In this document: one piece after another, positions 4,414 to 14,761 of the stretch | Position numbering within the stretch: position 1 is the stretch's first letter | Layout of the letters: every line of letters begins with the position of its first letter | NCBI GenBank assembly: GCA_020848435.1 | Contig: JADLAC010000029.1 | Coordinates: 38,062 to 102,061, forward strand | DNA length: 64,000 nt | From: Burkholderiales bacterium | GTDB lineage: Bacteria; Pseudomonadota; Gammaproteobacteria; Burkholderiales; WYBJ01 | Direction: 5' to 3' | Notes under the pieces: model-generated | What the model was told of the DNA's origin: nothing | What the model saw: only the letters and a program-made list of their open reading frames with translations | Databases searched by the model: none | Translations under genes and position numbers: made by a program

Positions 4414-4743
4414 TTACGGCGCGCGATCCGAGGGCTCGGCCGGCGCGAAGAAGGACGCGCCGCAATTCGTACAGGCCGGCGGTAGCTCGATTCGGGGCTG
4501 GAATCGTATCCGCTCACCACAGCTCGGACAGGCACCGCGGCGCATGTTGCACAGCGCCAGCCCGGTGATGGCCGCAAGCGCCGTACCCAACAATGCCTCG
4601 ACCGCTGCCGGCAGCGCCACGCCGGCGAGCAGTGCCAGGACACCCAGTGCGGCGAGCATGGTCACGATCCACAACCGGACGACGCTGCGCCGCCAGCGCT
4701 GAATCCCGGCGATCTGCGCCGATCGTTCGTCGTCGAGCTGCAT
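4414..4743 (-). CDS. Small membrane protein with C-terminal zinc ribbon
   Basis: 109-aa protein. After a charged N-terminus (residues 1-20) come two adjacent hydrophobic segments (LWIVTMLAALGVLALLAGVA and AAVEALLGTALAAITGLAL). These are followed by a cytosolic zinc-ribbon-like domain with paired cysteines CPSC and CTNC about 20 residues apart (four ligands). The ATG at 4743 is preferred over an in-frame GTG at 4758. The function is unknown; such ribbons are common in small membrane adaptors. The gene is downstream of the MmgE/PrpD gene on the same strand with a gap of about 195 bp, so linkage is uncertain. Confidence 0.6.
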   Translation of the reverse strand: MQLDDERSAQIAGIQRWRRSVVRLWIVTMLAALGVLALLAGVALPAAVEALLGTALAAITGLALCNMRRGACPSCGERIRFQPRIELPPACTNCGASFFAPAEPSDRAP

Positions 4744-4937
4744 CTCGGCGCCCCGCACGCGCTGCCGGTCAAGTCGTGCTCATGCGCTCGGGTGCGATCG
4801 CGGCAAGCAGGCGCCGATCTGTCGCCAACGCCACCGAGCCCTGCTCAGCGCCGATACGCCCCTCCGGCACGCCCGAGCGCTCGTAAGGGCGAAGCCGCGG
4901 ACAATCCATTACGTCGTTACTGATCGCTACCGGGCTA

Positions 4938-6335
4938 TCAACGGACAAGGAGGCGCGCGATGCCCGCGGCATCGTCGAGCTTGTCCAGACCGAGAACGGC
5001 GTCGCGCAACGCCTCCACCTGTTGATTCGGAAAGACATGGCGCGCGAGCTTCTCGAACTTCTCCACCACGTCGGCTTCGCTGGCGAACTTGTGCTCGGAG
5101 CCGCGTGGCGCTTCCACCGTGCGCGACATGCGCTTGCCGTTCTTCAAGTGGACCTCGACGCGGACCATGTGGCGATACGTGGAGCCCCGTGCGGTGATCT
5201 CAGGATCGTGCCGGACCTCGATCTTCTCGGCGAGCGCCATGCGGGCGGGATCGGCCACGCAGGATTCCGGGAACTGGTCGACGAACACATCGCCCTCGAG
5301 CAGCAGCGTCGCCACGCAGAACGGCAGATTGAGCTGAGCCGAGGTCAAACCCTGCGGCTGGTATTTCCAGCCGACATGATCCATCGTGACTTGCGAGCCA
5401 TGCACGACGATGCGCTCGATATCATCCGGCCCGTAGCGCTGCTCGGTCTGCATGTCGCGCAGCGCGTCGAGCGTCGTATGGTTGCTGCCCACGCAGGAGT
5501 AGAACTTCAGCGCCACCCCCATCGTCTCCCAGCGCTGGCCGAGCCCGGCCACCAGCTTGGCCCGATCGAATCGGTCCGTGGAGCGCGAGAAGGTCGTACA
5601 GAAGCCGCCGTACTCGGACTCGAACACGTTCACGATCCCGGTGAATCCGCCGGCCGCGAGCAGCGCGCCGTAGAGGCCGCTTTGCGAGGAGCGGCCCGCG
5701 TGCATGCGCTTGACCATCGCGCCGTATTGCGCCGCCATGAGCCCGGCCGATTGCGTGCCCGTAATGCCGAGGGCATGGACCGTGCGGTCGGCATCCAGAC
5801 GCAGCGCTCGGGCTGCCCCGGCAGCCGCGGAGAACACGCCGACGGTGGCGCCGGAGTGCCAGCCTTGGCCGATGTGCTCCTGGCCCATGCACATGCCGAC
5901 CCGAGGGCCCGTCTCGTAGCCCGCCACCGCGGCGGTCAGGAACTCCTTGCCGCTCATCCCGGGCTTCATTTCGGCGATCGCGATCAGCGCCGGCAGCGTC
6001 ACGGCGCCGACGTGCAGCACGCCGACCCGATGAACGTCGTCCAACTCGAAGCCCTGCACCAGCGAGCCGTTGGCGAGCGCCGCATGCGGCGCGGACAGCC
6101 GCACCGCTGTGCCCCATACCGCCGCGCCGGGCGAGGTATCGACCCCTTTCAGCGTGTCGATCAGGATCCGGCTCCACGGCAAATCGGCGCCGTAGACGGC
6201 GCAGCCGAGCGAATCCAGGATCAGCAGCTTGATACGCGCGAGCACCTGCTCCGGAATCGCGTCATAGCGCAGTCCGGAAATGAACTCGGCCAAGCCGCGG
6301 GTATAGCGATTGTCGCTGCCGCTATCGTGCGCCAT
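4938..6335 (-). CDS. MmgE/PrpD family protein
   Basis: 465-aa member of the MmgE/PrpD family, which includes 2-methylcitrate dehydratase, cis-aconitate decarboxylase and related enzymes. The N-terminal helical domain shows the family signature LILDSLGCAVYG (about residues 30-41), then ANGSLVQGFELDDVH, GYETGPRVGMCMG and HSGATVGVFSAAAGAARAL. The later segments VAGLGQRWE and LKFYSCVGSNHTTLDAL are also typical. The ATG at 6335 is preceded by GAGGAC at a good distance. The substrate cannot be deduced because no prp or citrate-cycle genes flank it. It lies just downstream of tRNA-Sec on the same strand. Confidence 0.88.
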   Translation of the reverse strand: MAHDSGSDNRYTRGLAEFISGLRYDAIPEQVLARIKLLILDSLGCAVYGADLPWSRILIDTLKGVDTSPGAAVWGTAVRLSAPHAALANGSLVQGFELDDVHRVGVLHVGAVTLPALIAIAEMKPGMSGKEFLTAAVAGYETGPRVGMCMGQEHIGQGWHSGATVGVFSAAAGAARALRLDADRTVHALGITGTQSAGLMAAQYGAMVKRMHAGRSSQSGLYGALLAAGGFTGIVNVFESEYGGFCTTFSRSTDRFDRAKLVAGLGQRWETMGVALKFYSCVGSNHTTLDALRDMQTEQRYGPDDIERIVVHGSQVTMDHVGWKYQPQGLTSAQLNLPFCVATLLLEGDVFVDQFPESCVADPARMALAEKIEVRHDPEITARGSTYRHMVRVEVHLKNGKRMSRTVEAPRGSEHKFASEADVVEKFEKLARHVFPNQQVEALRDAVLGLDKLDDAAGIARLLVR

Positions 6336-6423: not shown

Positions 6424-6518
6424 TGGCGGAAGAGAGTGGGAGTCGAACCCACAAAGGACCGTCAACGGCCCCCACCGGGTTTGAAGTCCGGCCACCCCAC
6501 CGGGGACGCTTCTCTTCC
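6424..6518 (-). tRNA. selC: tRNA-Sec, anticodon TCA
   Basis: 95-nt selenocysteine tRNA. The acceptor stem pairs eight bases (GGAAGAGA with TCTCTTCC), longer than the usual seven, followed by discriminator G and encoded CCA. The anticodon loop carries TCA (plus-strand bases 6482-6484) in the context GGACTTCAAACCC. There is a long variable arm (GGGCCGT/ACGGTCC-like stem) and a T arm GTGGG-TTCGACT-CCCAC. These traits separate tRNA-Sec from tRNA-Ser and from suppressors. It lies on the same strand as selA and selB, 102 bp downstream of the thioredoxin-reductase-like gene. Confidence 0.97.
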
Positions 6519-7604: not shown

Positions 7605-9557
7605 CTACGGCTTGGCGCGGCCCGCGCCGGCCGCCGCGGCAGCCAGCGCCTGGTCGAGCGGGCGGCGTATCCTGCGCGCGTCGCCGAGCCTTTGGGTGTA
7701 ACCGATGCGGTCGAAGTATTCCAGGACTTCGATCGAAAGCTTGCGGCTGGCGCCGCAGCGATCGCGGTAATCGGCCGCCGTGAACTGGCCGTTGGGCTTG
7801 GCGCCGGCGGTATTCGCGGCAATCTGCGCCAGCCGCTCGATGGTGTTGCGAAGCATGAACCGATCGACCATGACCTTGATCGGTTCTCCGCCGCGGCTTT
7901 TGCGGTGCAGGAAGTCGCTTACCGCCTTTTCGGACAAACGCAACTGCTCGGCGATTTCCTTCACCGTGGGGGGCAGGGGCGTGTCCTTCTGCAAGCACGG
8001 CAGGACGCGCTGCCACAACTTTTCGTCCTCTGGATTCGAGGTCGCATCGTGCCCAGGCCGGCGGATGCGCGTGCCGGCCAATTCCACTTTGCCCGCCTGG
8101 GCCAGCTCGCGCACGATCTGGCTCAGCGCCCAATCCGGGACGCGCGTTTGGATGTGCTGCGGCAGGCCCGCCAGCTCGAGACCGAGCGACTTGGGATCGT
8201 CGCGATGCAAGCGCGTGACCGCCGCCACGATCGAATCCGCGAGCTGGTTCTTCCGGGCCGCGGCGAGGCCGATGCGCTCGCCCCGTCCGAGCACCGCCAG
8301 CTCGCATTTCAGGTACAACGCCGCCGCGCTCGACTGGTCGAGATTGAACGCGGCCTCGAATTTGCCCAGATCGATACCGTCAGCGCTGGCGGCGCTCAGC
8401 GCGCGCAATGCATCTTCCGCGGAATCGGCCGACAACGCCGCGACCACCTCCAGCCGCGCGCTGGAATTGCGACGCACCGCGGGTGCGAACGGATCGACCA
8501 CCGTGCCCCCGCCGATGGTGCGCGTCGCCGACTGGTCGCGCAGGATGAAGCGATCGCCGTGCAGACAGGCGATGGGACGCTCCAGGATGATCTGCGCCAC
8601 GCGGCTGGCCCCGGGTGCGATCGATTCGCCGCGGCGAACAGCGACGCGCGCGGTAACGGCTTCCGTTCCGAGGTGAAAATGCACCGGTGTCCAATGCGCG
8701 AGCGGCTCCTTTTCCGCCGCCAGGACCTTCACCTGGGCATCGATGCGACGGGTGGGCCGATGGATGGTCTCATCCAGCACCCAATCGCCGCGCCGAACCT
8801 GCTCCTTGTCGAGCTTCTCGCCCGTCAGATTGAGCGCGCAACGGCGGCCGGCGCTGACCTCGCCGGCCGCCTTGCCGTGGACCTGTATGCCGCGGACCCG
8901 CACCGGAATGCCCGCCGGCGAGATCATCAACCGGTCGCCGATCTTGACCTGGCCATTGAAGACGGTACCCGTGACCACCGTACCGCTGCCGGAGATGCTG
9001 AATACCCGATCGATGGCGTAACGGAAACGCCGCCCCTGCGTTTCGCGCGCCTGGATGTTGCGCGCTTCTTCGAACAATCGGGCGCGCAGCTCATCGATGC
9101 CGCTGCCGCTCAGTGCCGAAACGGGCAGCACGCTGGCGGCATGCAGCGTGGTGCCGGCCAGCAGGCGCTGCACCGACTCCGTGACCTCGCGCACCCGTGC
9201 CTCGCCCACGCGATCGACCTTGTTGACGACCGCGATGCCACGCGAGATGTTCAGCAGGTCGAGAATCTGCAGGTGTTCCACGGTTTGCGGCATGACGCCA
9301 TCATCGGCGGCGACGACCAGCAGCGCCAGGTCGATGCCGCACACTCCCGCCAGCATGTTGCGGACGAATCGCTCGTGACCGGGCACATCGACGAAGCCGA
9401 GTAGGCCGCCCTCGGGCGTGGGCACATAAGCGAAGCCGATGTCGATCGAGATGCCGCGGCTTTTCTCTTCCGGCAGGCGATCGGTGTCGACCCCGGAAAG
9501 CGCCTTGACGAGCAGCGTCTTGCCGTGATCGATGTGGCCGGCGGTCGCGACGATCAT
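7605..9557 (-). CDS. selB: Selenocysteine-specific translation elongation factor SelB
   Basis: 650-aa specialised GTPase that carries Sec-tRNA-Sec to UGA codons marked by a SECIS hairpin. The N-terminal EF-Tu-like domain has G1 GHIDHGKT at residues 7-14, the switch region EEKSRGISIDIGFA, DVPGHERFVRNMLAG and NKVD. Beta-barrel domains follow. The C-terminal third (about residues 400-650) contains the repeated winged-helix units that bind SECIS RNA. The start ATG overlaps the selA stop by 4 bp (ATGA), so the two genes are translationally coupled. Length is close to E. coli SelB (614 aa). Confidence 0.97.
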   Translation of the reverse strand: MIVATAGHIDHGKTLLVKALSGVDTDRLPEEKSRGISIDIGFAYVPTPEGGLLGFVDVPGHERFVRNMLAGVCGIDLALLVVAADDGVMPQTVEHLQILDLLNISRGIAVVNKVDRVGEARVREVTESVQRLLAGTTLHAASVLPVSALSGSGIDELRARLFEEARNIQARETQGRRFRYAIDRVFSISGSGTVVTGTVFNGQVKIGDRLMISPAGIPVRVRGIQVHGKAAGEVSAGRRCALNLTGEKLDKEQVRRGDWVLDETIHRPTRRIDAQVKVLAAEKEPLAHWTPVHFHLGTEAVTARVAVRRGESIAPGASRVAQIILERPIACLHGDRFILRDQSATRTIGGGTVVDPFAPAVRRNSSARLEVVAALSADSAEDALRALSAASADGIDLGKFEAAFNLDQSSAAALYLKCELAVLGRGERIGLAAARKNQLADSIVAAVTRLHRDDPKSLGLELAGLPQHIQTRVPDWALSQIVRELAQAGKVELAGTRIRRPGHDATSNPEDEKLWQRVLPCLQKDTPLPPTVKEIAEQLRLSEKAVSDFLHRKSRGGEPIKVMVDRFMLRNTIERLAQIAANTAGAKPNGQFTAADYRDRCGASRKLSIEVLEYFDRIGYTQRLGDARRIRRPLDQALAAAAAGAGRAKP

Positions 9558-11020
9558 GACGCAATCGCCGTCGCGCTCGATTGCGCTTGCATGCGCCCGG
9601 CGCCTGCGCCAGCGCCAAGATCGAGCGCAGCGAGCTGGCGCGTGAGCAGGCGCGGGTCGTCCAGCGTGCGCAGGTCGAAGACCAACGTGCCGTCCTGGAT
9701 TCGCCCGATCACCGGCAGCGGCAGTTTGCGAAAGGCGGCGGCCAGCCGCTCGACCTGACGGCCGCTCTTGCGCTTTCCCTCGAGCGGACGCAGCGCCACG
9801 CCCACGCTAGCGAGCAAGTCGACCGGCAGGGAGCCGCTGCCGATCTGGCTGCGGCATTCGACCTGGCGCACTTCGGCATGGCCGTCCAGCGCAGCCCGAA
9901 GCGCCGGTGTAACGGCATCGGCGACTCGCTCGATTTCGGCGCGCGAGCGCGTGAGCCAGGCAAGCGTCGGCAGGCGGGCGCACAATCGGTCCGGATCGGC
10001 GTAGAGCTTGAGAATCGCTTCCAGTGCGGCCAGCCGCATCTTGTCGACGCGCAACGCGCGCTTCAGCGGATTGCGATTGATGCGTGCGACCAGCTCGCGC
10101 CGGCCGGCGATCAGCCCGGCCTGGGGACCGCCGAGCAGCTTGTCGCCGCTGAACGTGACCAGATCGGCGCCGTGGCCCAGGGTCTCGCGCGCGGTCGGCT
10201 CGTGCGGCAGGCCCCAGCGTTCCAGATCGACCAAGGTGCCGCTGCCCAGATCGACCAGGAAGGGCAGATCCCGGGCGTGCGCCAGATCGGCGAGCTTGTC
10301 TTCGGCGACGTGCGCGGTGAAGCCCTGGATCGCGTAGTTGCTGGTGTGCACCTTCATGATCGCCGCCGTGCGCGGGCCGATGGCGTCGGCGTAGTCGCGC
10401 GGGTGCGTCCGGTTGGTGGTGCCGACTTCGACCAGCCGGCACCCGGCGCGGCTCATGATATCGGGAATACGGAAGGCGCCGCCGATTTCGACCAGCTCCC
10501 CGCGCGACACGATCACCTCCTTGCGGGGGGCTAGGGTGGCGAGAACGATCAGCACCGCGGCGGCGTTATTGTTCACGACGGTCGCGGCCTCGGCACCGGT
10601 CAGTCGCGTCAACCAGGCTGCGACATGGTCGTCGCGTTCGCCACGGCTTCCCTTGGCGAGGTCGTACTCGAGATTGGTGGCCGCGGTCATTGCATCGGCC
10701 ACGGTGGCCGCGGCTTCCGGGGGCAATACCGCGCGTCCCAGATTGGTGTGCAGGACCGTGCCCGTCAGATTGAGCACCTTGCGCTGGGACGGCGCACACG
10801 CGCCGTCAAGCTTCGTTCGCAAGATCGCGGTGAAAGCGGGCTCGTCGAAATCGTCGCCCGCAACGAGTTGCGGCTGCTCGCCCGCACGAACCTCGGCCAG
10901 CAGCCCGCGGATCAGCTCGGTGACCATGCTGCGGCCGAAGCGCTCGATCTCCGGTGAGCACACGGCGAGCAACCTGTCGACGGACGGGATGGAGCGGGGG
11001 ACCGATGCGTTGGGCGGCAT
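9554..11020 (-). CDS. selA: L-seryl-tRNA(Sec) selenium transferase
   Basis: 488-aa PLP enzyme that converts Ser-tRNA-Sec to Sec-tRNA-Sec using selenophosphate. The motif LNLTGTVLHTNLGRA (about residues 83-97), NNNAAAVLIVL, the SRGELVEIGGAFRIPDIM segment and the PLP lysine in SGDKLLGGPQAG (Lys294) are all characteristic. The ATG at 11020 is used; the frame also opens at a TTG two codons earlier. It is the first gene of a minus-strand run selA-selB-flavoprotein-selC. SelD, which supplies selenophosphate, is not found in this window. Confidence 0.97.
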   Translation of the reverse strand: MPPNASVPRSIPSVDRLLAVCSPEIERFGRSMVTELIRGLLAEVRAGEQPQLVAGDDFDEPAFTAILRTKLDGACAPSQRKVLNLTGTVLHTNLGRAVLPPEAAATVADAMTAATNLEYDLAKGSRGERDDHVAAWLTRLTGAEAATVVNNNAAAVLIVLATLAPRKEVIVSRGELVEIGGAFRIPDIMSRAGCRLVEVGTTNRTHPRDYADAIGPRTAAIMKVHTSNYAIQGFTAHVAEDKLADLAHARDLPFLVDLGSGTLVDLERWGLPHEPTARETLGHGADLVTFSGDKLLGGPQAGLIAGRRELVARINRNPLKRALRVDKMRLAALEAILKLYADPDRLCARLPTLAWLTRSRAEIERVADAVTPALRAALDGHAEVRQVECRSQIGSGSLPVDLLASVGVALRPLEGKRKSGRQVERLAAAFRKLPLPVIGRIQDGTLVFDLRTLDDPRLLTRQLAALDLGAGAGAGRMQAQSSATAIAS

Positions 11021-11254
11021 GCGCAAGGCGAGGGCGGCTGGAACGGCGAGCGGAGACTGCGGCGCTCACAAGTTTAGCATCGTCGCACGCTCGCGCCATC
11101 GCTGTGCGCCGGCGAGCCCGCCTCGAGCGGAACGTAACGCCGTATGCACCAGCGTGGTCCGCTGTCGCGCTTGGGGTTGCACACACCCCGGGGCGGACGA
11201 TCACGCCATACGCGAAAATCGCCCCGTCCCTTCGGGTCGCGCCCACAACGCAGC

Positions 11255-11283
11255 GCGCGAAATCAAGTCCGACAGGCTCCTAG
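11255..11283. repeat. Dispersed repeat, half copy
   Basis: 29 bases here (loop plus right arm) are identical to bases 21166-21194 of the hairpin at 21149-21194. The left arm is absent in this copy. It spans the stop of the Sel1-repeat protease (minus strand). The 250-bp space between this gene and selA otherwise shows no gene; it must hold the selA promoter if selA is not read from upstream. Confidence 0.7.
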
Positions 11284-12806
11284 CGCCAGCACTCGATCAG
11301 CAGGGTGAAGCGGCGGGCGCGCTCGGGCGCATCGAGAATCGCGCCTCGCGGAGGAAGCGCCTCGTCGTCGGGCAGGTCGACGCCATGCGCCTCGATGAAG
11401 TTGCGAGCCACCGCGCCGCTGATGGCGAAATTGACGTTCTGCGGCACATCGCCGGTGACCATGGCCACCTGCAAGGCATTGAGCTTGCTCACGACCACGC
11501 CGATGACTTCCCCCTGGGCATCGAGCACCGGACCGCCGCTGTTGCCGTGCTGTATCGGTGCGGTGATCTGGAACAGGGTATCGTTGTTCTTCGGTCCCGC
11601 CAGTGCGCTCACCGTCCCGGTGGTGACATTGAGCGATTGCGCCAGCAGGTCGCTCAGGGGAAAGCCGGCGACCATGATCTGCTCGCCCAGCCGAGGCGCG
11701 GTCTGGAGCCTGAAGCGGGCCGTTTCGGCTACGGCGAGCTCGCCTTCGAGCAGCGCCAGGTCGTTCTTGGCATCGCGCGCCAGTACTTTGAGCACCGCTT
11801 TGCGTGCCGGTGCGCGCACTTCCGTGCATTGCTCGACGACGTGGTTGTTAGTAAGGACGTAACCCGGCAGCCCAACGATGAATCCGCTGCCCGTGCCGGT
11901 ACGGCGCTTGCCGCTGGCGTCGGGCGTGCCGATCGCCTGGGCAACGCGGACGGGACGCCAACGGCTGGCCGCCTTCTGCGCTTCGGCAACTTGTTCGGGT
12001 GTCATCTTCGCCGCCAACTCGTCGCGCAGCTTGTGCGCACGCGCCGAGCCGCGGGCCGCGGCCAGGTTTGCCCACATATGGGCCTGCACGAAGTCCTGCG
12101 GCACGCCGGTTCCCAGGTGGTAGCTCACGGCCAGCGCCTCCATCGAGGGCCGGTTGCCCTGGCTCGCCGCCCGGCGCGTCCAGCGCAGAAACTCGTCGAG
12201 ACTGCGTGCCGCGCCGCCTTCGCCTTTCAGATGCGCCTGCGCGAGCACGGTTTGGGCCTGAACGTTGCCGCGGTCCGCTGCCTTGCGCGCCCACCGCACC
12301 GCCTCGTCGGCATCCTTGGCGACACCATCGCCCGTGAACAAGGCTTGCGCCAGTGCGCCCTGGGCTCGCACCGAGCCCGCTTCGGCGGCCGAGCGCCATT
12401 GCTGCACGGCTTGGTCGGCATCGCGCGCTACACTCTCGCCGAGCCGGTGCATGATACCGAGCCAGAACCGCGCATCGGCATGGCCCTGCTCGGCGGCGCG
12501 CGTAAACCAGCGAAATGCCTCTTCCGGTGCGCGCTGGGGATTGGCGGGCGCGCGCAGGATCTGGCCGAGGGCGACCTGGGCCGCCACGTCGCCTGATTCG
12601 GCGAGTGGCCGCAAATGGTCCGCCGCGCCGGCGAAATCGCCGCCGGCAAGCGCTTTGAGCGCGGAGGGAATGTCCGCGCCCGCGGGCATCGCGGCGAAGG
12701 TGCCGAGCCCGAGACAGACGAGCCAAAGCAGACCGATCGCCGCCCGCGCACATCGGCTGCCCCGTGCAAGCGCCCACGCGCCCGCCCGCGCATATGCACG
12801 CTGCAT
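11280..12806 (-). CDS. Sel1-repeat protein fused to trypsin-like serine protease
   Basis: 508-aa secreted or periplasmic protein. The ATG at 12806 gives an arginine-rich N-region and a hydrophobic signal helix (AAIGLLWLVCLGLGTFAAM) ending near residue 45. About residues 50-290 are Sel1-type TPR repeats (patterns such as GHADARFWLGIMH, GSVRAQGALAQAL, GNVQAQTVLAQAH). The C-terminal third is a chymotrypsin-fold domain with the triad in TNNHVVE (His), KNDLALLEG (Asp) and HGNSGGPVLD (Ser). There is no PDZ domain, unlike DegP. It starts 41 bp after the selenoprotein gene, so they may share a transcript. Function unknown. Confidence 0.85.
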   Translation of the reverse strand: MQRAYARAGAWALARGSRCARAAIGLLWLVCLGLGTFAAMPAGADIPSALKALAGGDFAGAADHLRPLAESGDVAAQVALGQILRAPANPQRAPEEAFRWFTRAAEQGHADARFWLGIMHRLGESVARDADQAVQQWRSAAEAGSVRAQGALAQALFTGDGVAKDADEAVRWARKAADRGNVQAQTVLAQAHLKGEGGAARSLDEFLRWTRRAASQGNRPSMEALAVSYHLGTGVPQDFVQAHMWANLAAARGSARAHKLRDELAAKMTPEQVAEAQKAASRWRPVRVAQAIGTPDASGKRRTGTGSGFIVGLPGYVLTNNHVVEQCTEVRAPARKAVLKVLARDAKNDLALLEGELAVAETARFRLQTAPRLGEQIMVAGFPLSDLLAQSLNVTTGTVSALAGPKNNDTLFQITAPIQHGNSGGPVLDAQGEVIGVVVSKLNALQVAMVTGDVPQNVNFAISGAVARNFIEAHGVDLPDDEALPPRGAILDAPERARRFTLLIECWR

Positions 12807-12847
12807 GCCGCGCGGCTTCGAGCGCTCCGATGGGGTGCGTTGCGTAG

Positions 12848-13600
12848 CTACTCCCAAAGCCCTTCGGGCATCGGCAAACCCTGCGCCTGCTCGGGTCGCA
12901 GGGGTTGGGCAGGCTTGATATCGAAGCGCTCGAGCACGACCGCGAGCTGGCGGCAATGCTGGGCCGAGTGCCACGTGCTGCGCTCGAACACGTCATGGGC
13001 GCTCTGGATGCCGTAGTACGTGTCGAGCTTCTTCTCCAGGGCAGGGTCAGGATTGGCCGCCCACCAGGTGCTCATGCGGTCGCGCACCTGCTGGCCGTAT
13101 TCCGCCACCTGGGCAGGCGTGCGCATGGTTTCGGGCGGCTCGGTATTGGCGAGGGTATTGGAATAGACTTGGCCCTCGTAAGCGAGCAGGAACGCCTCGC
13201 CGATGCGGAAAATGTGATAGACGAACGGACGAATGAGCCGCGGCCGATTCGGAATCACCTGCTCGCCCATGCGATCGAGCGGCAACTGGCGTACCAGCCC
13301 CTGCGCCGTGGCGAGTATGGAATCGTAGCGCGGCACCAGCAGCACGGGTGCGAGCTGGCTTCGATCGAGCGCGACGCCGATGAACTTGGCGACGTCTTTG
13401 AGGTTCTGCGCGAAGGTGTAGCGATCGCCGATCGCCACCACCGGCACGTTACGCAGGCCCAGCGCTTTCAACTGATCCATGCCGCCCGGCGTGTTGATCA
13501 CGTCGACGACATCGAAGTCCTTCACCGTCTGCGAAAGAAACTCTTTCGTCTTGAGGCAACTGCTTCATCCCGGCTGGGTGAATAGACGCACGCGTTCCAT
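12848..13600 (-). CDS. Selenoprotein: glutaredoxin-like domain (GUSSC) fused to a DinB-like domain
   Basis: Translated from the ATG at 13600, with AGGAG eight bases upstream, the product is 250 aa if the TGA at 13567-13565 (codon 12) is read as selenocysteine. The N-terminus is MERVRLFTQPG-Sec-SSCLKTK, a glutaredoxin/thioredoxin-fold beta strand followed by a UxxC redox motif (Sec12, Cys15). The matching cis-Pro region is LRNVPVVAIGD (Pro53). Residues from about 90 on resemble a DinB/YfiT four-helix bundle with a possible metal triad His129 (FVYHIFR), His211 and His215 (HSAQH). No frameshift is needed. A SECIS-like hairpin follows the TGA, and selA, selB and selC lie downstream on the same strand. 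Without Sec decoding, a caller would start at the GTG at 13525 and lose the active site. The redox substrate is unknown. Confidence 0.85.
13532..13548 (-). promoter_or_regulatory. SECIS-like hairpin after the in-frame UGA
   Basis: In the mRNA, CGAAAG (13548-13543) pairs perfectly with CUUUCG (13537-13532), closing a five-base loop AGUUU. The loop starts 22 nt after the UGA, and it carries G in its second position followed by U. This agrees with general features of bacterial SECIS elements: short upper stem, G in the first two loop bases, loop roughly 16-37 nt from the UGA. A weak lower stem (UGCC with GGUG) could extend it across an internal loop. The element lies inside the coding region, as is usual in bacteria. 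Confidence 0.65.
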
Positions 13601-13636
13601 CGTGCTCTCCTGTAGGCGCCGAATCTGCAAACAAGG

Positions 13637-14761
13637 CTACTCTGCGCAGGCGAAAGCCGTCAAGGACGCCGCCGCGGCTTGGGCGGTTTCGATGATGCCG
13701 CCGCCGAGACAGGTTTCACCTTGATAAAGCACGACCGACTGTCCCGGCGTGACCGCCCATTGCGGCGTGTCGAAGTCGATCACGCACAGGTTCGCGTCGA
13801 GGGCGGCGATGCGGCATGCGGCATCGGTTTGTCGATAGCGCGTCTTGGCGCTATAGCGCAAGGCCGGATCGGGCGGCGAACCGGCAATCCAATTGAGCCG
13901 CGTGGCGTGTAGCCTGCGCGCGAGCAGCAGAGGATGGTCGTGGCCTTGGACTACGATCAGGCGATTGTGTGCCATGTCCTTGCGAGCGACGTACCAGGGC
14001 AGGGCGGGGCTTGCCTTGCGCCCGCCGATCCCGAGGCCTTGGCGCTGGCCGATGGTGTAGTACATGAGGCCGGCGTGGCGCCCGACGAGGCGACCGTCCG
14101 GCGTACGAATGTCGCCCGGCTCCGGCGGCAGGTAGCGATTGAGGAAGCTGCGAAAGGGCCGCTCGCCGATGAAGCAGATCCCGGTGCTGTCGCGCTTGGC
14201 GTGGACCCCGAGCCCATGGGCTCGAGCGATCGCGCGCACGGCGGACTTGCGCAGGCCGCCGAGCGGAAACAATGCGCGCACCAGTTGATCCTGCCGCAGG
14301 CGATACAGAAAGTAGCTTTGATCCTTGGTTTCGTCCAGGGCGCGCAGCAGGTGCACGAGCGCGCCGTCTCGCCGCGTGCTCGCGTAATGCCCCGTGGCGA
14401 TATGTTCGGCGCCCATGCCGATTGCATGATCGAGAAAGCAGCGGAACTTGATCTCGGCGTTGCACAAGACATCGGGGTTGGGCGTGCGTCCGGCGCGGTA
14501 CTCGGCGAGAAATTCGCTGAACACGCGTTCCTTGTACTGCGCCGAGAAGTTGACGACCTCGATCTCGATGCCCAGGGCATCGGCCACGGCGACGGCATCA
14601 ATCAGATCCGAGCGCGACGAGCAATACGCGTCGGTGTCGTCATCCTCCCAGTTCTTCATGAACAGGCCGACCACCTCGTGGCCCTGCTGCTTGAGCAGCA
14701 GCGCCGCCACCGAAGAGTCGACACCGCCCGACATGCCGACCACGATGCGCTTGGAGGTCAT
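13637..14761 (-). CDS. mnmA: tRNA-specific 2-thiouridylase MnmA
   Basis: 374-aa ATP-dependent enzyme that makes 2-thiouridine at U34 of tRNA-Lys, -Glu and -Gln. The PP-loop is [16 protein letters not shown] (residues 8-23). The catalytic cysteines are in [13 protein letters not shown] and [12 protein letters not shown], and the family segments KNWEDDD, ATGHYA and DQSYFLYRL are present. The C-terminal beta domain ends with a [16 protein letters not shown] motif. Length matches E. coli MnmA (368 aa). The selenoprotein gene follows after a 36-bp gap on the same strand, suggesting a shared transcript. Confidence 0.96.

What the first reader, a model, noticed from the sequence alone, without database searches (positions are those of the whole stretch)
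12848..13600. Unannotated selenoprotein: glutaredoxin-like Gly-Sec-Ser-Ser-Cys domain fused to a DinB-like domain
The gene at 12848-13600 (minus) has an in-frame TGA at 13567-13565, codon 12, exactly at the place of the first catalytic residue of a thioredoxin-fold redox motif (TQPG-TGA-SSCLKTK). The frame is unbroken from an ATG with a good Shine-Dalgarno site (AGGAG) to a stop 250 codons later. The C-terminal half looks like a DinB/YfiT bundle with a His129/His211/His215 metal triad. selA, selB and tRNA-Sec are on the same strand within 7 kb. I know of Sec-containing glutaredoxins and thioredoxins, but I do not recognise this fusion. DinB-fold proteins include thiol-dependent S-transferases and isomerases, so a selenol-based thiol transferase or reductase is a reasonable guess.
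Basis: partly seen in the sequence, partly recalled or inferred. Interest (0 to 1): 0.95.

Follow-up and report, generated by a model that had tools for sequence, protein, structure and literature searches.

The report
New selenoprotein: glutaredoxin fused to DinB
This bacterial gene carries an internal TGA codon that, together with a hairpin-forming sequence just after it, is kept in most of the relatives compared (the others have a cysteine codon there), so it is predicted to make a selenocysteine-containing two-domain redox enzyme of a family we found in no list that we read; its task is still a guess, likely selenium-based reduction of sulfur bonds.

Summary
The gene at 12848-13600 (-) has an in-frame TGA at codon 12 in a glutaredoxin UxxC motif, followed by a DinB-fold domain with three conserved histidines. 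Of 58 distinct homologues read from DNA, 49 have TGA there and 9 Cys. All 49 TGA genes carry CGAA[A/G]GAGUUUCUUUCG 16 nt after the UGA; none of the 9 Cys genes does. Four codons of this hairpin are invariant in 49 of 49, unlike other conserved degenerate codons. The 17-mer occurs in the 5.7-Mb genome only at the two copies of this gene. A 59th gene, from another class, has TGA but a different hairpin. Of 27 order-level genomes with a TGA copy, 25 have selB and tRNA-Sec. Of 120 listed database hits, 118 lack the N terminus. NCBIfam 20.0 gives no match over a cut-off; a 119-family 2026 inventory has no such entry. Function is inferred: a UxxC reductase with a metal-site thiol domain, perhaps fed by a thioredoxin-reductase-like neighbour. 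All 27 genomes also have UGSC selenoprotein genes. Selenium incorporation is not shown.

The parts
12848..13600 (-). Grx-DinB selenoprotein gene, 250 residues with predicted Sec at 12
13565..13567 (-). TGA codon 12, predicted Sec, first residue of the UxxC motif (G-U-S-S-C)
   Evidence: TGA in 49 of 58 distinct homologues, Cys in 9
13532..13548 (-). predicted SECIS hairpin CGAAAGAGUUUCUUUCG, stem starting 16 nt after the UGA
   Evidence: 49 of 49 TGA genes, 0 of 9 Cys genes; invariant codons 20-23; only two places in the genome at up to 2 mismatches
13607..13611 (-). Shine-Dalgarno-like AGGAG
   Evidence: read
13367..13600 (-). glutaredoxin/NrdH-like thioredoxin-fold domain, residues 1-78
12887..13360 (-). 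DinB/YfiT-fold helical domain, residues 81-238
13214..13216 (-). His129 codon, predicted metal ligand
   Evidence: 58 of 58
12968..12970 (-). His211 codon, predicted metal ligand
   Evidence: 57 of 58
12956..12958 (-). His215 codon, predicted metal ligand
   Evidence: 57 of 58
13556..13558 (-). Cys15 codon, predicted resolving residue of the UxxC motif
   Evidence: 58 of 58
13637..14761 (-). mnmA, directly upstream
   Evidence: TIGR00420 418 bits; neighbour cluster 3, in 14 of 58 loci
9554..11026 (-). selA, selenocysteine synthase
   Evidence: TIGR00474 566 bits
7605..9557 (-). selB, Sec-specific elongation factor
   Evidence: TIGR00475 439 bits
6621..7523 (-). thioredoxin-reductase-like flavoprotein with a CADC motif, candidate electron donor
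   Evidence: TIGR01292 214 bits, under the cut-off of 343; sequence; recurs after selB
6424..6518 (-). tRNA-Sec (anticodon TCA)
   Evidence: ARAGORN; RF01852 75 bits at 6428-6518

Best explanation
The gene is predicted to encode a selenoprotein in which UGA codon 12 would be read as selenocysteine, joining a glutaredoxin/NrdH-like domain with a G-U-S-S-C motif to a DinB-fold domain that likely binds a metal through three conserved histidines. The UGA, the hairpin sequence after it, the Cys homologues and the sel genes downstream are shown by sequence; Sec insertion itself is inferred from them. Proposed mechanism (inferred, untested): the Sec12 selenolate attacks a disulfide, a selenenylsulfide or a mixed disulfide; Cys15 resolves the intermediate as a Se-S bond; the thioredoxin-reductase-like flavoprotein encoded after selB reduces that bond with NAD(P)H. 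The DinB half has no conserved Cys, so it would hold the substrate or a low-molecular-weight thiol at its metal site. Possible clients are the UGSC selenoproteins that all 27 order-level genomes with the Sec form also encode. My estimates by step: selenoprotein 0.98; UxxC thiol-disulfide reductase chemistry 0.8; metal-bound thiol site 0.6; TrxR-like donor 0.45; UGSC clients 0.3.
For: TGA in 49 and Cys in 9 of 58 distinct homologues. Hairpin sequence in 49 of 49 TGA and 0 of 9 Cys genes. Codons 20-23 invariant (entropy 0) where other degenerate codons of residues conserved in at least 90% show 0.6-2.0 bits (Lys19, in the stem, 0.33). Three genes change a stem A-U pair to G-U and keep it. 17-mer (up to 2 mismatches) at two places only in 5.7 Mb, both copies of the gene. 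selB over its cut-off in 25 of 27 genomes with a TGA copy and in 3 of 8 with only Cys copies. selA or selB downstream on the same strand in 21 of 49 TGA loci and 0 of 9 Cys loci (several TGA loci are too short to show them). Model pLDDT 95.4, pTM 0.91, both folds recovered. C15, P53 and H129 in 58 of 58. UGSC family in 27 of 27 genomes with a TGA copy, 3 of 8 with Cys copies only, and 10 of the other 364. TrxR-like gene in 11 sel clusters with the Sec form (the window's, plus 10 fetched clusters, L003 and L072 being one) and in 0 of 8 selB loci from genomes with neither Grx-DinB nor UGSC (L131-L138).
Against: No direct evidence of selenium. Predicted fold energy after the UGA is no lower than shuffles (z -0.30 and -0.38). 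A 59th gene, L151, has TGA with a different predicted hairpin. DinB_2 is under its Pfam cut-off. Two of 27 genomes with a TGA copy, G054 and G356, showed no selB over the cut-off and no clear tRNA-Sec; they are 84% and 83% complete. UGSC genes lie within about 8 kb in only 5 of 58 loci, about what I would expect by chance, and 10 of 40 UGSC genomes have no full-length Grx-DinB. The TrxR-like gene was not found in the f12 sel stretches with the Sec form (L083, L087, L088, L090, L104), nor in 8 of 12 further sel stretches from UGSC genomes (L139-L141, L143, L145, L147, L148, L150); it is present in two UGSC genomes without Grx-DinB, G328 and G266 (L144, L142). A paralogue, L069, keeps the UGA and hairpin but lacks both C-terminal histidines. 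The co-occurrence counts are not corrected for relatedness.
Confidence: 0.75

Rival explanations
1. The TGA is an ordinary stop (sequencing error, pseudogene, or a start at the GTG at 13525), and the real product is a 225-residue DinB-family protein.
For: Database entries start late: 118 of the 120 listed hits cover at most 93% of the query, one named 'DinB family protein'. The predicted fold energy after the UGA is unremarkable.
Against: TGA in 49 distinct genes from many assemblies, and in a single-contig genome of another class (L151). Only synonymous change in codons 1-11 among the four closest orthologues. The next start codon lies 14 to 54 codons after the TGA in the TGA loci, so no conserved restart. 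A product without codons 1-25 would lack strand 1 and helix 1 of the modelled glutaredoxin fold.
Confidence: 0.02
2. It is a selenoprotein, but the DinB domain is the catalyst: a metal-bound glutathione (or other thiol) is transferred to an electrophile, as in bacillithiol and mycothiol S-transferases, and the Sec-glutaredoxin half only keeps the thiol or the product reduced. Non-operon copies would serve catabolic pathways.
For: The three histidines fit the metal ligands described for BstA/YfiT (H67, H160, H164; same spacing of the last two; PMC5815605, passages). The same passages note two-domain members of that superfamily whose second domain likely drives specificity. Non-operon copies sit near genes that look like CoA-transferase III, thiolase, cupin and alpha/beta hydrolase (names given by eye from the sequences); an alpha/beta hydrolase recurs near the copy in another class.
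Against: The Sec/Cys motif is kept more strictly than the metal site: L069 lost two histidines and keeps the UGA. No substrate is known.
Confidence: 0.3
3. It works in selenium supply or Sec-synthesis control (reduced selenium delivery, or a gauge of Sec availability), hence its place ahead of selA-selB-tRNA-Sec.
For: selA or selB downstream on the same strand in 21 of 49 Sec loci.
Against: Five of the eight genomes with only Cys copies have no selB over the cut-off, so the family works without Sec synthesis. Sec copies in long stretches without sel genes exist, e.g. L009, L065, L067, L068, L080, L084, L091, L100. Of 105 genomes with selB only 28 have a full-length Grx-DinB.
Confidence: 0.12

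Closest known systems
Sec-containing glutaredoxin (review entry: Grx, PF00462, UxxC, experimentally verified; Kim et al. 2011 seen only as a reference title)
   Same: PF00462 domain and UxxC motif
   Different: fused to a DinB-fold domain; found here in Burkholderiales-type genomes, often beside selA/selB
NrdH-redoxin (TIGR02194; 1h75, 4fiw, 4hs1)
   Same: best NCBIfam match and a structural match to the first domain
   Different: under the family cut-off (37.2 vs 85.75 bits); fusion; Sec
DinB/YfiT or S-transferase-like (STL) superfamily: BstA/YfiT, mycothiol S-transferase, maleylpyruvate isomerase
   Different: sequence match weak; N-terminal Sec-glutaredoxin domain; no thiol transfer shown
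UGSC family selenoproteins (NF041046) and the GOS UGSC/Unknown_1 fusion (PMC2398784, passages)
   Same: same genomes, TGA-encoded UxxC; the 6 own-genome UGSC genes that I could read have an AGUNU apical sequence after the UGA (by eye)
   Different: another family: P0001 does not match NF041046
UXX-star glutaredoxin-like selenoproteins (NF041212, NF041211)
   Same: glutaredoxin-like (seleno)proteins
   Different: 28.3 and 20.5 bits against cut-offs of 66 and 100

Membership tests
Bacterial selenoprotein | in-frame UGA flanked by conserved coding sequence | tested here: met
Bacterial selenoprotein | Cys homologues aligned at the UGA | tested here: met
   9 of 58 genes; P0120, P0121
Bacterial selenoprotein | SECIS-like hairpin just downstream of the UGA | tested here: met
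   same hairpin sequence in 49 of 49; codon invariance; energy not significant; L151 has a different predicted hairpin
Bacterial selenoprotein | Sec machinery in the genome | tested here: met
   selA, selB, tRNA-Sec in the window; selB in 25 of 27 genomes with a TGA copy; selD not searched
Bacterial selenoprotein | selenium in the protein | not testable with these tools
   needs 75Se or mass spectrometry
Glutaredoxin (PF00462) | score over the Pfam cut-off | tested here: met
   38.1 vs 22.9 bits
Glutaredoxin (PF00462) | C/UxxC motif and the conserved Pro (cis-Pro) | tested here: met
   U/C12, C15 and P53 in 58 of 58; that P53 is cis is assumed from the fold
Glutaredoxin (PF00462) | glutathione-dependent disulfide reduction | not testable with these tools
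   bench assay
NrdH-redoxin (TIGR02194) | score over the NCBIfam cut-off | tested here: not met
   37.2 vs 85.75 bits
UXX-star (NF041212, NF041211) | score over the NCBIfam cut-offs | tested here: not met
   28.3 vs 66 and 20.5 vs 100 bits
UGSC family (NF041046) | match to the NCBIfam model | tested here: not met
   not among the families at E up to 1e-3
DinB/YfiT (STL) superfamily | DinB four-helix fold | tested here: met
DinB/YfiT (STL) superfamily | three metal-binding His, the last two four residues apart | tested here: met
   H129, H211, H215 in 58, 57 and 57 of 58; geometry and metal not measured
DinB/YfiT (STL) superfamily | Pfam DinB_2 over the cut-off | tested here: not met
   21.1 vs 24.8 bits for this protein; many listed relatives are labelled PF12867
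DinB/YfiT (STL) superfamily | metal-dependent thiol transfer | not testable with these tools
   bench assay
Glutathione S-transferase | GST fold over the whole chain | tested here: inconclusive
   Foldseek rows such as 4glt_A span both domains but at rmsd 11.6 A and TM 0.32

The most novel reading that the evidence does not exclude
A DinB-fold metal thiol enzyme that works with selenocysteine, serving as the dedicated reductase of a strongly expanded UGSC selenoproteome: NAD(P)H, a TrxR-like flavoprotein encoded in the sel operon, Sec-glutaredoxin-DinB, then dozens of UGSC selenoproteins. A self-contained selenol electron chain built into the Sec-decoding operon.
Probability: 0.22. Interest if true: 0.88.

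Novelty: new variant of a known kind. Interest (0 to 1): 0.72.

Why it matters
It adds a selenoprotein family whose architecture is not in the inventory I could read, and whose database entries, among the 120 hits listed, are nearly all truncated DinB proteins because the TGA is taken as a stop. It sits in the Sec gene cluster of Burkholderiales-type genomes that also hold many UGSC genes of unknown function (24 TGA-containing places in this genome), and so gives a testable handle on what those proteins do and how they are kept reduced. It also links Sec chemistry to the DinB thiol-transferase fold.

Tried and rejected
UGSC adjacency: a first scan found 0 of 58 because my filter was too narrow; a profile found UGSC genes in 5 of 58 loci (6 genes, all TGA). 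By a hand estimate (24 copies in 5.7 Mb, 16 kb per locus) chance gives up to about 4, so adjacency was dropped as evidence.

Hairpin free energy: not below shuffles, so not used as support. GST-like whole-chain architecture: only poor superpositions. A Sec formate dehydrogenase as the reason for the Sec system: none of the 9 Molybdopterin-family places in the genome contains a stop; other selenoprotein families and selD were not searched. Distances between Sec12 and the histidines were not measured: no model coordinates in the Python box. A PDB profile search gave 6iz2_A only at E 0.014. Whether G533 (L151) has selB and tRNA-Sec was not tested genome-wide; within about 19 kb there is no tRNA-Sec, and of the selA, selB, mnmA and TrxR-like profiles only selB hit, weakly (1.8e-27; perhaps a related GTPase).

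The tree puts 48 Sec genes in one clade (94/92, short of the tool's star) with L069 apart on a long branch; the Sec/Cys label needs 2 changes. L151 was found later and is not in it. Its tryptophan-type motif resembles the Cys forms, which suggests a separate Sec/Cys exchange, untested.

Full report

2. Evidence that the TGA is a Sec codon. I gathered homologous DNA from the genome collection (20 loci) and from whole-genome searches. Dropping fragments that do not span codon 12 and most of the chain, 58 distinct genes remained; they cover 48 of the 50 full-length places listed (two TGA places, G241:C320 and G329:C11, were not fetched). Codon 12 is TGA in 49, TGC in 8, TGT in 1. All 49 TGA genes have CGAA[A/G]GAGTTTCTTTCG starting 16 nt after the TGA; none of the 9 Cys genes does. 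Within the 49, Glu20-Phe21-Leu22-Ser23 are always GAG-TTT-CTT-TCG, while other degenerate codons of residues conserved in at least 90% of rows have 0.6-2.0 bits of codon entropy (Lys19, also in the stem, has 0.33). From the family's own codon use this string has probability 0.0023 per gene. Three genes have AAG for AAA, turning a stem A-U pair into G-U. The 17-mer, allowing two mismatches, occurs in the 5.7-Mb genome only at the two Grx-DinB genes. In the four closest orthologues codons 1-11 differ by synonymous changes only. Of 8 UGSC loci fetched from the same genome, 6 could be read, and these have an AGUNU apical sequence in a hairpin after their UGA (loops read by eye). Against: fold energies are not below shuffles, and a 59th gene, L151 from a single-contig genome of another class, has TGA but a different predicted hairpin.

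3. Sec machinery. The window has selA, selB and tRNA-Sec on the same strand downstream. Of 399 genomes of the order, 35 have a full-length Grx-DinB, 27 with a TGA copy and 8 with Cys only; selB is over its cut-off in 105 of 399, in 25 of the 27 and 3 of the 8. tRNA-Sec at 68 bits or more was found in the same 25 of 27 and 3 of 8, and in 4 of 11 genomes without the gene that I chose. The two exceptions, G054 and G356, are 84% and 83% complete. selA or selB lies downstream on the same strand in 21 of 49 TGA loci and 0 of 9 Cys loci; several loci are too short to show it. In a phylum-wide sample of 398 genomes only the window's genome and G533 have full-length hits.

4. Anatomy and conservation. 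Sec/Cys12, Cys15, Pro53 and His129 are kept in 58 of 58, His211 and His215 in 57 of 58; the exception, L069 (28% identity), keeps UGA and hairpin. The three histidines fit the metal ligands reported for BstA/YfiT (PMC5815605, passages); a review says that other DinB members hold the metal by three His (PMC10950700, passages). No Cys of the DinB half is conserved (Cys216 in 18 of 49 Sec rows).

5. Neighbours. Over 58 loci of differing length, mnmA occurs in 14, selA in 19, selB in 17, a TrxR-like flavoprotein in 10, a GST-like gene in 7 (GST and several other names were given by eye). A profile of the TrxR-like protein found it in 10 fetched sel clusters with the Sec form (L070 added to those), beside the window's own copy. 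In the 20 further sel stretches it hit L149 (second sel locus of G002), L144 and L142 at 320 bits or more and L146 weakly (209 bits), none of the 8 from genomes with neither Grx-DinB nor UGSC (L131-L138), and not the other 8 (L139-L141, L143, L145, L147, L148, L150). It was not found in the f12 stretches. The protein scores 214 bits against thioredoxin reductase, under the equivalog cut-off of 343. The window's ORF 11280-12974 (Sel1 repeats and trypsin-like domain) lies between the gene and selA.

6. The UGSC link. The genome has 24 places matching UGSC (NF041046), each with one TGA, 3 over the curated cut-off. Order-wide, 40 of 399 genomes have UGSC: all 27 with a TGA Grx-DinB, 3 of 8 with only Cys, 10 others. 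Within the 105 selB genomes UGSC occurs in 25 of 25 with the Sec form and 11 of 80 without (counted by hand; Fisher p 6e-16, relatedness ignored). But UGSC genes lie near Grx-DinB in only 5 of 58 loci, roughly chance. UGSC is thus a candidate client, not a shown one.

7. Mechanism. I commit to a UxxC reductase: Sec12 attacks, Cys15 resolves, a TrxR-like flavoprotein re-reduces, and the metal site of the DinB half holds the substrate or a thiol cofactor. The UxxC chemistry follows from established knowledge of glutaredoxins and Sec enzymes (recalled); the donor and the clients are inference from gene neighbourhood and co-occurrence.

8. Known or new. The 2026 inventory of 119 prokaryotic selenoprotein families/subfamilies (PMC13188914, Table 1 read; passages) has Grx, UXX-star and UGSC entries but none with DinB; term counts in the main texts of PMC9312934 and PMC2398784 show no mention of DinB (only passages of both were read). 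NCBIfam 20.0 gives no match over a cut-off. Paper searches for selenoprotein or selenocysteine with DinB returned two papers, seen only as listings and on other subjects by title. A search for glutaredoxin, DinB and domain fusion (any two; 49 papers, 12 listed) showed no title on this fusion; none was read for it. Only open-licence papers are held. JGI already names a Cys form 'glutaredoxin/uncharacterized damage-inducible protein DinB', so the fusion itself has been seen by automatic annotation; I found no record of the Sec form.

Noticed in passing
genome G000 (window's assembly), 24 places listed: The window's genome has 24 UGSC-family places, each with one in-frame TGA; with the two Grx-DinB genes that makes about 26 candidate selenoprotein genes. 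A relative, G292, has 56 UGSC matches.
   Followed up: partly
L069 (G001:C122), 4531-5280: A divergent Grx-DinB copy (28% identity) keeps the UGA and hairpin but has lost His211 and His215.
   Followed up: partly
L151 (G533:C1:3614076-3614810): A TGA form in another class, in a single-contig genome, with the tryptophan-type motif of the Cys forms and a different predicted hairpin: perhaps a separate Sec/Cys exchange.
   Followed up: partly
G002:C331 (L149) and G002:C103; G266:C19 and C22: G002 and G266 carry two selB genes each; in G002 both loci also have a tRNA-Sec.
   Followed up: no
L010, L011, L015 and L170 16334-17105: An alpha/beta-hydrolase-like gene (about 36% identity) lies near non-operon Grx-DinB copies in two classes.
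   Followed up: partly
window 11280-12974 (-): An ORF with Sel1 repeats and a trypsin-like domain sits between the selenoprotein gene and selA; its GTG start at 12974 overlaps the selenoprotein gene and is probably too far upstream.
   Followed up: no
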